Shown here piece by piece: positions 33,215 through 37,344 of a stretch of 64,000 nt of DNA. Origin of the DNA: a virus; the IMG/VR virus record IMGVR_UViG_3300046810_000100, positions 100,249 through 164,248 of that record, one strand, 5' to 3'. The notes beneath the pieces were generated by a model. That model did no database searches. It saw only the letters and a program-made list of their open reading frames with translations, and had not been told where the DNA came from. Both the position numbers and the translations under genes were made by a program. Position 1 is the stretch's first letter, and each line of letters begins with the position of its first letter.

Positions 33215-34558
33215 ATGAGCACTGTAGTTTATTTATCGTTTGGCAGTATATCACCACTCTACAATAACGCACTAGAAAGTTTGTCACCTATTGGTGAACT
33301 TTCCAACAAATCCCGGACCTATGCAAGAGACCCGGGGGTTTTCGCCAATGACAACGCTGCCAGTGTTACAGAGCTCTTCAACTTCTTGAGCCAAAACAAC
33401 AACGTCGATATCAAGATGCCGGCCAACTTGGCTCTTGTTCAAATCAATATCGGCGACTGGCTGTATGCCCAAGCAAAGCAGGGTAACATTACTAGCAGCC
33501 GTCCTGGCACCCTAGCGCTGTTGCAAGCGACCTTTTCGAACAATATCGAAATTACCGATATCGGCGAGATGGTAACCGACAACACCATCTGGTTCCCAAG
33601 TTTCATCCACGGTACTCACACTGTTGGCGCCGCTAAACACGAGTTCTACCTGTGGTTCGCTGACGCCTATTTCCAGGATCAGTACCCTGTTGTAAAGTTC
33701 ACAGTTTGCCACCCTCTCCCAATCGGCGAGATGGACTTCCTGATGAACGCGAACTACAAGCAGATCGAAGCCCGCTTTGATCTCGAAACGCCCGATGTAA
33801 TTGAAGATCGGACCCATGCTCTGACCAACCAAGCGGCCTGGCCTTATACAGAGCGTAAGGTTCTTGGCTTCCAGATCTTGGACCTGATCAACACCCCTAA
33901 TTACAATATGGGGTATTGGCGCTTCGTAGCGTGGGGCAACAGCTCTGACGCGGAAGACCAGCTCTTCGAGCAGATCCAGAAAGAGATCCTGGACAACTCT
34001 CAGTTCGGTCGTCCTCGTTGGGAAGAGAAGATCCCTGACCTTTTCAACCCGCTTGAGTTCTACGTGATTCCGTCGTTCGATCGGTATGGCCTTACCAACA
34101 AGACCAATGGCGCGAAGAACTTTTCCCCAATTGCTGATCGTGAAACGATGCAGGTCTTGGTCGACAAGTACTTGACCCCGAACATGACGCCGGCTCACGT
34201 CATAAAATCCATGCAGATCGTTCCTGTCCTCTATAAGTCGCTTAGCTGTGCCTTCGTGGCCAAGCTGAACAACCGCCCGGGGATGGAAAAGATCACTGCT
34301 TTGTTCCCTGATTACTCGTTGATCGAGTCGACTGACCCAGACTTCGACCTGATGAATAGCGCCACCATGGAGTTCATTCGTCAGATGGAAAACCTGTTGG
34401 CTGCAGCTGAGGTAGTTACCCCTACCAGCTTGCCTCCAACTGGTGTTACCCGGGTTATGCGTTTCGGTCAGGTCTATGTGGCTCGTCGTATCGGGAAGGT
34501 AAAGATCCTGGTAATGACCCGCTACCAAATGCTGCAAGACGGCGTTGTGAGTGAATAA
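33215..34558 (+). CDS. probable virion structural protein, 447 aa
   Basis: The frame is open further upstream, but the start at 33215 (MSTVVYLSFGSISPL) is chosen for AGAGGTGAGAG before it; the longer frame would overlap the divergent gene. The protein is soluble, mixed alpha/beta and aromatic-rich, with no enzyme motif. It is followed after two bases by the 213-residue gene. Size, composition and context suggest a virion protein; this is an inference. Confidence 0.6.
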   Translation: MSTVVYLSFGSISPLYNNALESLSPIGELSNKSRTYARDPGVFANDNAASVTELFNFLSQNNNVDIKMPANLALVQINIGDWLYAQAKQGNITSSRPGTLALLQATFSNNIEITDIGEMVTDNTIWFPSFIHGTHTVGAAKHEFYLWFADAYFQDQYPVVKFTVCHPLPIGEMDFLMNANYKQIEARFDLETPDVIEDRTHALTNQAAWPYTERKVLGFQILDLINTPNYNMGYWRFVAWGNSSDAEDQLFEQIQKEILDNSQFGRPRWEEKIPDLFNPLEFYVIPSFDRYGLTNKTNGAKNFSPIADRETMQVLVDKYLTPNMTPAHVIKSMQIVPVLYKSLSCAFVAKLNNRPGMEKITALFPDYSLIESTDPDFDLMNSATMEFIRQMENLLAAAEVVTPTSLPPTGVTRVMRFGQVYVARRIGKVKILVMTRYQMLQDGVVSE

Positions 34559-34560
34559 CC

Positions 34561-35202
34561 ATGGCTGACAAAAACATCATCCCCGCGATTCATGCTGCGG
34601 GACGATTTGAAGCATCTGCTCCGTTTAACACCATTGTTGATCAGAGCAAGTACTACACCGTTGAAGCGACCCGTACCATCTTCGAGATGGAACAGGCTAA
34701 GCTCGACCTGTACACGCTGGTGTTCGCACCGGTGGGTGTTGTCGCCGAGGATTACCCTACTGTGCTGGCTCGTGCCAAAGCAGCAGACGCGATCATCGTT
34801 TCCTTGATGGACCGTAACGGGATTCCTGTTTACGTCCCTACTACTTACCTGACCTCGTTTCCTCTGGTCGATGGTGTGTCGTATGAACGTATGTGCATTG
34901 TGGCTGACGTGGGCGCCGTTCCTCCGAGCATGCAACAAACCCTGCAACAGGCAATGGACCACATGGCCAACTACCTGCTGACAACTGTTGGTATTACCGC
35001 CCGCGTTACATTGGGTACGATCCCGACTGTTGGTTACACCAGCCAAGCGCAAGCAGACGCCTACGAGAATACCCGCAAGGGTAAGATCACTGACGCCAGT
35101 AATGATGTAGCCAAGGTAAATGCCCTGACTGCTCAGCTGGCCGCAGCTCAAGCATACAACCTTGAGTTGGAAGCAGCCTTGGCTGCCGCTACAGCACCTT
35201 AA
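34561..35202 (+). CDS. probable virion-associated protein, 213 aa
   Basis: Function unknown. A beta-rich first 150 residues and an Ala-rich helical C-terminal tail (VNALTAQLAAAQAYNLEL) likely to form a coiled coil or trimerisation helix. It starts two bases after the preceding stop, so it is probably translated with the 447-residue protein and may act with it. A hairpin terminator follows. Confidence 0.6.
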   Translation: MADKNIIPAIHAAGRFEASAPFNTIVDQSKYYTVEATRTIFEMEQAKLDLYTLVFAPVGVVAEDYPTVLARAKAADAIIVSLMDRNGIPVYVPTTYLTSFPLVDGVSYERMCIVADVGAVPPSMQQTLQQAMDHMANYLLTTVGITARVTLGTIPTVGYTSQAQADAYENTRKGKITDASNDVAKVNALTAQLAAAQAYNLELEAALAAATAP

Positions 35203-35287: not shown

Positions 35288-36481
35288 TTACACCTGACGG
35301 ATAGAACCAATCGCGATACCGTCATCACCTTCTACTACTTGACGCCAAGTATAAGGTTTGATGTACGGGTTCGGAGTGTCCAGCAGATACGCATACAGCG
35401 CTTCTACGAAGGACTGGGTGTAGCGGTTGTACAGGCCGTTCTTGAAGTCCAGCTCGGCAACGTCGTTGATAGCCGTTGGCATCGAGTTGTCGTCGTGGTA
35501 CTGGTAAACCACCCACTCGTTCAAGTCGAGACCGATGTTGCCGCCGTGCTTGGTCAGACGAGCGATAACGTCGTTGGCGACGCCTTCCATGATTTCCATA
35601 CCGTGCTCAGCGCTGTAACCGTAGATGCGCTTGAGGAAGTGACTGGCCGCCATCAGCTGGATCTTCAGTTCAGCATCGAAGATGTCTTGGATGACTACGT
35701 CGGTGGAGATCATTCCACGGTAACGCTTGATCATGCGGTTGATCTGGTTCGACGCATGGCCGATACGTTTGACGTTGACCTGGACGATCTTGTTGTACAT
35801 GTACCAGTCGTCAAGATCGATGACCGAATCACCCAGAGACACTTCACCACTTTCAGGCAGCTTCGGATAAACACGGTCTAGGCCGATGTTCATTTTCTGG
35901 AAGAAGTCGACACCCTTGAAGCTCAGGTACAGGTCGTGGTCTTTCTGCTTGATGATGTGACCCAGCTTGTCGGCGAGGTGTGTAACGTACGCACACTTCT
36001 CACGCATCTCAGCGGCCATACGGGCGCAGACAGAGTAAACCTGAGTGAAGTCACCATCGGTCAAGTGCTCCCAGCCGTAGACCTGATTCTGGACGCTGGT
36101 GAGGATGTCCATAGGCAACTCTATAGGCATCTTGGTGACAGTGCGCTTCCAGTGCTTACGAACCATCTCGACGCACTGGTTAGGACGGTCACACCACTCT
36201 TTATGCGGGCTCTCATCTTCCCAACTGGTAATGAAGTAATCGTACAGAGAGTCCTGGATAACGAAGGTGTAAGACTTGCCAGCCCATTCAAAACGAATGA
36301 ACTTGACTTCGACAGTGTCAGCCAACCCTTGGTAGGTATAGATGTCTGGCATGTGACCAAAGCCAAACTCCGGGTACATGCGGTAGAAGAAATTCCGCAG
36401 TGCATTGATTTCGTTGAACGCGTCATCCGACAAGGTTTTACCGCGTGCTTCTGCTTCTGCCACTGTCCACAATTTGAACAT
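35288..36481 (-). CDS. hypothetical protein, 397 aa
   Basis: Function unknown. The start at 36481 (MFKLWTVAEAEARGKTL) follows AAAAGGGAAACC; an ATG eight codons upstream lacks a good site and would overlap the divergent gene region. The protein is helical, soluble, and rich in Tyr, Trp and Asp, without a recognised motif or membrane segment. Its start is only 29 bp from the divergent intein gene, so their promoters must lie within coding sequence or overlap. Confidence 0.6.
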   Translation of the reverse strand: MFKLWTVAEAEARGKTLSDDAFNEINALRNFFYRMYPEFGFGHMPDIYTYQGLADTVEVKFIRFEWAGKSYTFVIQDSLYDYFITSWEDESPHKEWCDRPNQCVEMVRKHWKRTVTKMPIELPMDILTSVQNQVYGWEHLTDGDFTQVYSVCARMAAEMREKCAYVTHLADKLGHIIKQKDHDLYLSFKGVDFFQKMNIGLDRVYPKLPESGEVSLGDSVIDLDDWYMYNKIVQVNVKRIGHASNQINRMIKRYRGMISTDVVIQDIFDAELKIQLMAASHFLKRIYGYSAEHGMEIMEGVANDVIARLTKHGGNIGLDLNEWVVYQYHDDNSMPTAINDVAELDFKNGLYNRYTQSFVEALYAYLLDTPNPYIKPYTWRQVVEGDDGIAIGSIRQV

Positions 36482-36510: not shown

Positions 36511-37344
36511 ATGGTAAACATCTTCGCTAGTGGCAAAGCTATGCCACTTCATACCCTGGTAAAGACACCAGGGGGCTGGACAAGACTTGGCGACCTTAAG
36601 ATAGGCGACCAAGTGATCGGGCCTAAGGGGAACGTAGCGAACATCACTAACTGTTTCCCTCAGGGTGTTACTGAATGCTTTCGGTTTACCTTAGAGGATG
36701 GCCGCACAGCTGATTCTCACCCACTACATCTTTGGCAAGTACACGAAGCTGAGCCGAGTGCACAGGGGTACGTTACGACCACCCAAGATATTGTCGGGCA
36801 CTTCGATCAGTTCGGTTATTACTTGCCGGTAGTGGGGGAGGTAGGGGGGACTAGCATTGCTACGGTGGGCCTCGACCGTGACCTCCATCAGCTGGCGGCT
36901 TCTCTTGTTTCATCTGGTATAGTTATAGACAACCCAGTGATGGAACTCTCATATGGAGACCGCTACGCACTTGCAGAACGTATGATCGAACTATCCGGTG
37001 TTCATATATCGGAGAGAGGTGTCAGTGTCCTGATGGAAAACCAGACAGGAGCTGCTAACTTCAAGGAGCTCATGTGGAGCCTTGGGGGCGTCGCTACGCT
37101 AGACCCGTATGAAGCACTGTACCGGGTTGAATTCAAGCACAGGGACATCGTGGGGCTCGTAGACGGGCTACTGGGTGACAGCTTGGGTTCTATCATTGAC
37201 TTGAGTCTGTACGAAGACGTCAAACTCAAGATTGTTTCCTTTGAACAACTCAAACCCATGGAAACAGCTTGCATCAGCATTGACAGCGAAGACAGCTTGT
37301 ACATCATAGACGACTGGGTCGTTACACATAATAGTTTCTCCTGA
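36511..37344 (+). CDS. stand-alone class 3 intein with nine- and three-residue exteins
   Basis: The 277-residue product is almost entirely an intein. Residues 1-9 are MVNIFASGK; the intein runs from A10 to N274; SFS then the stop follows. Hint blocks are clear: AMPLHTLVKTPGGWTRLGDL (block A), HPLHLW (block B), CISIDSEDSLYI (block F) and VVTHN plus Ser (block G). Ala at position 1 together with W75, C254 and T272 is the class 3 (WCT) signature; H273, N274 and S275 complete the C-terminal junction. The middle has two degenerate LAGLIDADG-like segments (about 127-136 and 215-225) lacking normal acidic residues, so endonuclease activity is doubtful. TTAAGGACAAGG precedes the ATG. Spliced exteins would be only 12 residues, resembling part of a P-loop (ASGK/S). 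Confidence 0.85.
   Translation: MVNIFASGKAMPLHTLVKTPGGWTRLGDLKIGDQVIGPKGNVANITNCFPQGVTECFRFTLEDGRTADSHPLHLWQVHEAEPSAQGYVTTTQDIVGHFDQFGYYLPVVGEVGGTSIATVGLDRDLHQLAASLVSSGIVIDNPVMELSYGDRYALAERMIELSGVHISERGVSVLMENQTGAANFKELMWSLGGVATLDPYEALYRVEFKHRDIVGLVDGLLGDSLGSIIDLSLYEDVKLKIVSFEQLKPMETACISIDSEDSLYIIDDWVVTHNSFS

What the first reader, a model, noticed from the sequence alone, without database searches (positions are those of the whole stretch)
36511..37344. Stand-alone class 3 intein with almost no extein
Seen: a complete ORF whose product is an intein (A10 to N274) with the class 3 signature W75, C254, T272, plus His-Asn-Ser at the C-junction. Only MVNIFASGK precedes it and SFS follows it. Known: inteins normally interrupt essential host proteins, and class 3 inteins often sit in phage P-loop ATPases at GK/S. 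Inference: this is either a mobile or relocated intein kept as an independent gene, a remnant of an intein-split P-loop protein, or an intein adapted to another job. Splicing would release a 12-residue peptide.
Basis: partly seen in the sequence, partly recalled or inferred. Interest (0 to 1): 0.9.

Follow-up and report, generated by a model that had tools for sequence, protein, structure and literature searches.

The report
Inteins that outlived their host gene
In some large bacterial viruses an intein (a protein segment that normally cuts itself out of a host protein) has lost its host helicase gene, apparently several times, yet is kept almost unchanged as a gene of its own, which suggests that the cut-out piece does a job of its own that is still unknown.

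Summary
In detail: 36511-37344 (+) encodes a complete class 3 type intein with 9 residues before and 3 after it. It did not move. In Pseudomonas phage EL and 14 related contigs the homologous intein sits in the Walker A motif (GSGK^T) of a roughly 680-residue SF2 helicase at this locus. Here both exteins are deleted; the helicase's ribosome-binding site, first codons, the intein and a stop remain. No ORF166-type extein was found in this record or in a sister-strain record that overlaps both its ends. Three further extein-less lineages occupy the same locus; a tree of neighbouring genes needs at least three helicase losses. Two strain pairs show purifying selection (7 synonymous, 2 nonsynonymous; 16 and 0). 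Three of four lineages lost a residue needed for splicing, but all keep H73, W75, C254 and T272. Best reading: the excised intein had a function in trans and was kept when the helicase went. That function is unknown. Precedents: Arthrobacter Arth_1007 (a decayed, inactive intein with short exteins) and yeast HO (an intein-derived nuclease gene). New here: in-place, recurrent host-gene loss with the intein intact and constrained.

The parts
36511..37344 (+). extein-less intein gene, 277 aa
   Evidence: same structure at 99% identity in sister record L005/L023
36498..36507 (+). ribosome-binding site AAGGACAAGG, similar to the site before the helicase in some relatives
   Evidence: L037 ccctttaaggacaataatcATG; L033 ctttaaggacgacttcaATG
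36511..36537 (+). residual N-extein MVNIFASGK: MVNIFA resembles the helicase N-terminus (MFNLFS), SGK the end of its Walker A motif
36538..36780 (+). N-terminal part of the HINT splicing domain, with H70, H73 and W75 (boundary to the insert approximate)
36781..37215 (+). insert with one LAGLIDADG-like unit (alpha-beta-beta-alpha-beta-beta-alpha, residues 148-220)
   Evidence: secondary structure; PI-SceI match; no acidic residue at the aligned position 162 in 15 helicase inteins (choice of position made by eye)
37216..37332 (+). C-terminal part of the HINT domain: C254 (F:4), T272 (G:5), H273, N274
37333..37344 (+). residual C-extein SFS and stop TGA; the bases after the stop resemble those after the helicase stop in L030
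37365..37405 (-). terminator-like hairpin of 18 pairs, with a T-run on the minus strand; similar hairpin after the orphan in L065
   Evidence: 1 found, 1.0 expected in shuffles
35288..36481 (-). homolog of EL ORF167, divergent neighbour
   Evidence: 32% over 258 residues, E 1e-38
34561..35202 (+). homolog of EL ORF168 (phrog_3241)
33215..34558 (+). homolog of EL ORF169
   Evidence: 58%, E 3e-175

Best explanation
This is a gene descended from a class 3 intein, left behind when both exteins of its host, an ORF166-type SF2 helicase of EL-like jumbo phages, were deleted in place. Shown by sequence: the origin, the deletions, similar cases at the same locus that need at least three losses on the neighbours' tree, and purifying selection within two orphan lineages. 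Inferred: in helicase-bearing phages splicing frees the intein as a separate protein, and that protein has a trans-acting job; when the helicase became dispensable, deletions removed the exteins while selection protected the intein ORF, its start and its ribosome-binding site. In this window splicing is still chemically possible (C254 attacks the N-junction, transfer to Ser+1, Asn274 cyclisation) and would free the intein plus a 12-mer. In the other three lineages complete splicing should be blocked, so splicing is probably not the conserved trait; the folded HINT/LAGLIDADG-like protein is. Guesses at the job: DNA binding by the nuclease-dead LAGLIDADG unit (about 35%), or cleavage or acyl transfer at the N-junction by C254 (about 30%).
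For: Synteny with EL ORF169-168-167-166, with 29 bases between the ORF167 start and the next start in both. Of 16 loci found through ORF169 of window and EL, 12 carry helicase plus intein, 1 is the sister-strain orphan, 3 end before the site. Of 26 loci in the wider ORF169 scan: 15 helicase plus intein, 1 cut inside the intein, 2 helicase without intein, 5 orphan (4 lineages), 3 cut before the site, 0 with the site read and neither gene. No ORF166-type extein in G000 or G001, which overlap at both ends. The C-extein profile finds nothing in the records of L065 (219 kb), L172 (236 kb), L061 and L062; it does match in G002, G003, G004, G011, G014 and G015. Selection: window and L023, 7 synonymous and 2 nonsynonymous differences, P 0.0008-0.008 under neutrality; the two strains of L061/L062, 16 and 0 (P 7e-11 to 5e-8). 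Codon model: omega 0.098 on the window and L023 tips, 0.096 in helicases; omega 1 on the tips costs 5.3 log units. The window keeps 49 of 49 columns invariant in 15 helicase inteins. At least 3 changes on the neighbours' tree; the remaining helicases of that clade group together at 100/98, as vertical descent predicts.
Against: No expression, protein or activity data. G000 and G001 are different strains and neither record is shown complete, so absence of the helicase rests on a composite; for the other orphan records only the C-extein profile was run. On the intein tree alone a clade of window plus L065 is not rejected (p 0.08 and 0.11), so spread of one orphan allele by recombination is possible; the neighbours' tree rejects it (p 0.0002). 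L062 plus L172 as one loss is not rejected (p 0.08). Stem dS is saturated, so selection is shown only within strain pairs. In the window pair the neighbours ORF167, 168 and 169 have 8, 2 and 9 synonymous and no nonsynonymous changes, so the orphan's 2 nonsynonymous changes make it slightly less constrained than they are; in the other pair it is more constrained than ORF169 (11 and 6).
Confidence: 0.8

Rival explanations
1. Recent relic: the helicase was lost lately and the intein is a pseudogene that has not yet decayed, as proposed for Arth_1007.
For: A published intein with tiny exteins is a pseudogene. In the window no splicing residue has been lost, which would also fit a very recent event.
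Against: 16:0 and 7:2 synonymous to nonsynonymous differences between strains that share the orphan structure; omega on the tips equal to that in helicases; four orphan lineages with open frames that keep 43 to 49 of 49 helicase-invariant columns.
Confidence: 0.08
2. Selfish persistence: the ORF is kept as a free-standing homing endonuclease.
For: The insert folds like LAGLIDADG nucleases. Free-standing homing endonucleases are common in phages (recalled), and yeast HO is an intein-derived nuclease.
Against: At the position aligned by eye with the catalytic acid (162) 15 of 15 helicase inteins have no acidic residue; the orphans have S, S, A, Q and, in L172 alone, E. The insert is less conserved than the HINT part in the orphans too.
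Confidence: 0.08
3. Trans-splicing or split-gene arrangement: exteins are encoded elsewhere and joined with this intein's help.
For: All splicing residues are intact in the window.
Against: The intein is whole, not split, and no ORF166-type extein is found in either strain record.
Confidence: 0.02
4. Assembly artefact.
For: Metagenomic contigs only; no isolated phage.
Against: The same structure in two non-identical strains (99.3% over 21 kb), and orphans in other contigs with different junctions.
Confidence: 0.02

Closest known systems
ORF166 helicase intein of Pseudomonas phage EL and relatives
   Same: homologous intein (42% to EL by tblastn; up to 64% to L025), same locus, same invariant residues
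   Different: EL and 14 other contigs keep the helicase exteins (about 151 and 527 residues); here they are gone
Arthrobacter sp. FB24 Arth_1007 class 3 type intein (PMC3196547; parts 1 and 2 of 3 of the text read)
   Same: class 3 type intein with short exteins (52 and 14 residues) and no recognisable host protein
   Different: Arth_1007 lacks Cys F:4 and His B:10, neither splices nor cleaves, and was judged a decayed pseudogene; the orphans here keep both residues, and two of their lineages show purifying selection
Yeast HO endonuclease (PMC5056185, one passage seen; PMC7282813, title and start of abstract in a listing)
   Same: a stand-alone gene described as a domesticated intein, whose splicing domain is not active
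   Different: HO acts as a nuclease in mating-type switching; here the gene is still at the host gene's locus, the nuclease motif is degenerate, and host-gene loss recurs
Class 3 DnaB inteins of mycobacteria (6bs8, 6rix)
   Same: HINT fold and WCT signature
   Different: they reside in a host protein and have no LAGLIDADG-like insert (chains of 125-131 residues)

Membership tests
class 3 intein | no Ser, Thr or Cys at intein position 1 | tested here: met
   A10; Ala in 15 of 15 helicase relatives and all 5 orphan sequences
class 3 intein | W at B:12, C at F:4, T at G:5 | tested here: met
   W75, C254, T272 in 15 of 15 helicase inteins and all 5 orphan sequences
class 3 intein | His at B:10 | tested here: met
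   H73 in all 20 sequences
class 3 intein | C-terminal His-Asn and a +1 Ser, Thr or Cys | tested here: met
   H273-N274-S275 in the window; not met in L065 (no His-Asn), L062 (+1 Gly) and L172 (+1 Leu)
class 3 intein | interrupts a host protein | tested here: not met
   9 + 3 extein residues, no ORF166-type extein in the records; hence 'descended from an intein', not an intervening element any more
class 3 intein | splices | not testable with these tools
   needs expression and mass spectrometry
LAGLIDADG homing endonuclease | LAGLIDADG fold | tested here: met
   PI-SceI match over 259 residues, Z 17.4; one unit seen in the model
LAGLIDADG homing endonuclease | catalytic acidic residue at the end of the motif helix | tested here: inconclusive
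   no acidic residue at aligned position 162 in 15 of 15 helicase inteins; the position was chosen by eye
decayed intein pseudogene (Arth_1007 type) | loss of catalytic residues and relaxed selection | tested here: not met
   49 of 49 invariant columns kept in the window; 7:2 in its own strain pair, 16:0 in another orphan lineage

The most novel reading that the evidence does not exclude
The excised intein of EL-like jumbo phages is a functional second product of the helicase gene. When the helicase became dispensable these phages shed the exteins at least three times and kept the intein as a domesticated, mostly non-splicing protein.
Probability: 0.65. Interest if true: 0.89.

Novelty: new variant of a known kind. 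Interest (0 to 1): 0.84.

Why it matters
Inteins are widely seen as parasitic, or as regulators of their host protein. Here the host gene is gone and the intein stays, in several lineages, with selection shown in two. That separates the fate of the intein from that of its host, provides natural variants that should not splice, and makes testable whether a released intein can serve the genome that carries it. It also suggests one reason why endonuclease-dead inteins persist.

Tried and rejected
Relocation of the intein: rejected by synteny, ribosome-binding site and first codons. Exteins elsewhere: in G000 the full EL protein matched only inteins and, at 29%, the phage's other intein-bearing helicase, a match that runs about 40 residues into the C-extein; local tblastn with exteins gave nothing under E 0.1. 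Orphans as a common state: of 96 loci found with the intein alignment (16 viral; 80 prokaryotic, the best 80 of 97) only L051, L061, L062 and L065 have fewer than 70 residues on both sides; L140 and L144 are short on the N side only, and some contigs end inside the gene. Orphans in the annotated phage collection: 555, 103 and 120 records matched, of which 40, 30 and 15 rows were listed; I looked at gene coordinates for 9, all with the intein inside a gene of 1530 bases or more. The rest were not examined. Family libraries: Pfam and NCBIfam empty for the ORF; L065 has a Hint_2 match below the cut-off; PHROGs matches are to terminase, primase and helicase-loader families, read as inteins within those families.

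Paper searches: 'orphan intein' 0 papers; 'class 3 intein' with 'phage' 15, listing seen and PMC3196547 read in parts 1 and 2 of 3; 'intein, standalone, extein, phage' 2; six phrasings of free-standing, stand-alone, domesticated, pseudogene and remnant inteins 2, of which PMC5056185 names HO as a domesticated intein (one passage); HO with intein 10, listing only; 'intein, phage EL, helicase' 5, a six-term search 4, 'without exteins' 1, listings only. None of these listings showed a phage case like this one; most papers were not opened, and most subscription journals are not held.

Dropped results: the ORF167 tree and rows named w167 and 167_win used an out-of-frame translation of the window's ORF167 and are not used; ORF167 homology rests and the EL and L062 queries. 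One search failed (missing file) and was repeated. On re-checking I found the HO precedent, and lowered interest from 0.87 to 0.84 and interest if true from 0.92 to 0.89 for it. One search was a report that did not fit the form.

Full report
What is there. The ORF at 36511-37344 (+) encodes 277 residues: MVNIFASGK, an intein from A10 to N274, and SFS. It matches class 3 and related inteins by sequence and by predicted fold (pLDDT 80, pTM 0.80; PI-SceI Z 17.4 over 259 residues; class 3 DnaB intein 6bs8 Z 14.2 over 123). The class 3 signature W75-C254-T272 is present and the intein starts with Ala. Residues about 91-235 form an insert with one LAGLIDADG-like unit. At the position that I align by eye with the catalytic acid (162), 15 of 15 helicase inteins and four of five orphan sequences have no acidic residue; L172 has Glu. 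I infer that the nuclease is dead.

Where it comes from. The window lies in a 164,248-base virus record. The nearest annotated relative is the intein in ORF166 of Pseudomonas phage EL, a helicase with the intein after GSGK of its Walker A motif (42%). EL has ORF169 (+), ORF168 (+), ORF167 (-), ORF166 (+); the window has homologs of the first three in the same order and strands, then the orphan. In both, 29 bases separate the ORF167 start from the next start. The orphan's ribosome-binding site resembles that of the helicase in relatives; MVNIFA resembles the helicase N-terminus (MFNLFS, MLGLFS), SGK is the end of Walker A, and the bases after its stop resemble those after the helicase stop in L030. 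The simplest account is that in-frame deletions removed most of a 151-codon N-extein and a 527-codon C-extein and left the intein whole.

Is the helicase elsewhere? Not found. The EL protein, a 12-sequence profile of the C-extein and tblastn with exteins gave no ORF166-type extein in G000 or in the sister strain G001; in G000 the EL protein also met the phage's other intein-bearing helicase at 29%. The profile matches in 3 of 6 first control records (the other three contigs end before the site) and in G011, G014 and G015. G001 overlaps both ends of G000, so the two cover about 217 kb; they are different strains, so this is a composite.

More cases. A scan with ORF169 of window and EL gave 16 loci: 12 helicase plus intein, one orphan (the sister strain), three cut short. 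A wider ORF169 scan gave 26: 15 helicase plus intein, 1 cut inside the intein, 2 helicase without intein (L183, L186), 5 orphan loci, 3 cut before the site, none read through with neither gene. The wider query held two sequences from orphan loci that had been found through the intein (L065 and L062), so among the additional orphans only L172 was found without that help. The four orphan lineages: window/L023 (THN^SFS); L065, 56% identical, ending VTR without His-Asn; L061/L062, about 40%, THN^GEC; L172, 42%, THN^LCIN. Residual N-exteins are 9 to 26 residues by the starts I chose, C-exteins 0 to 4. In each the ORF167 homolog precedes it on the other strand. The C-extein profile finds nothing in the records of L065 (219 kb), L172 (236 kb), L061 and L062.

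How often did it happen? On the tree of ORF169 plus ORF168 the orphan state needs at least three changes; window plus L065 as one clade is rejected (p 0.0002), all orphans together too (p 3e-115), L062 plus L172 not (p 0.08). On the intein tree three changes are needed; window plus L065 is not rejected (p 0.11), all orphans together is (p 0.03). The helicases that remain in this clade group together (100/98), as expected if they descend vertically and the orphans are losses. Spread of an orphan allele by recombination is not excluded.

Is it under selection? Window against L023: 7 synonymous and 2 nonsynonymous differences, P 0.0008 to 0.008 under neutrality depending on transition bias. The two strains behind L061 and L062 (L173, L174): 16 synonymous and no nonsynonymous difference (P 7e-11 to 5e-8), while ORF169 in the same pair has 11 and 6. 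As both members of each pair share the orphan structure, these changes came after the loss unless alleles recombined. In the window pair the neighbours ORF167-169 have 19 synonymous and no nonsynonymous changes, so the orphan is not the most constrained gene there. A codon model gives omega 0.098 on the window and L023 tips and 0.096 in helicases; omega 1 on the tips costs 5.3 log units; stem and L065 branches are saturated. Of 49 columns invariant in 15 helicase inteins the window keeps 49, L172 47, L065 47 (lost only H273 and N274), L062 43.

What it does. Splicing is probably not the conserved trait: it should fail in L065 and be blocked in L062 and L172, which lack a +1 nucleophile, while H73, W75, C254 and T272 persist in all. 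Since splicing in helicase-bearing phages sets the intein free, the simplest account is that the free intein already had a job. Which job is unknown; DNA binding by the dead LAGLIDADG unit and N-junction chemistry at C254 are guesses.

Known or new. Two precedents were found. Arth_1007 is an inactive, decayed class 3 type intein with 66 extein residues (PMC3196547, parts 1 and 2 of 3 read). Yeast HO is called a domesticated intein whose splicing domain is not active (PMC5056185, one passage; PMC7282813, listing). What I did not find in the searches named under Tried and rejected is an intein kept at its original locus, with the class 3 residues intact, after repeated loss of the host gene.

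Noticed in passing
G000:C1:47937-48710 (L002): Another SF2-type helicase of this phage carries its own intein at a Walker A GYGK^T site.
   Followed up: partly
G000:C1:82919-83809 (L003): A terminase-like ORF carries an intein at a Walker A-like site (QQGK^T).
   Followed up: no
L183 near 12130 and L186 near 11722: Helicase orthologs with an empty intein site (VGSGK-TLAA, AGSGK-TFLS) in contigs of 231 and 235 kb.
   Followed up: partly
L062:641-1816; G000:C1 about 38.8-39.3 kb: An ORF165-like gene, which follows the helicase in EL, lies between ORF168 and ORF167 in L062; a homolog of the L025 version lies far away in G000.
   Followed up: no
L173/L174 about 11.1-12.9 kb: The ORF167-like gene differs more between two strains (up to 34 changes per 300 bases) than the adjacent orphan intein does.
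   Followed up: no
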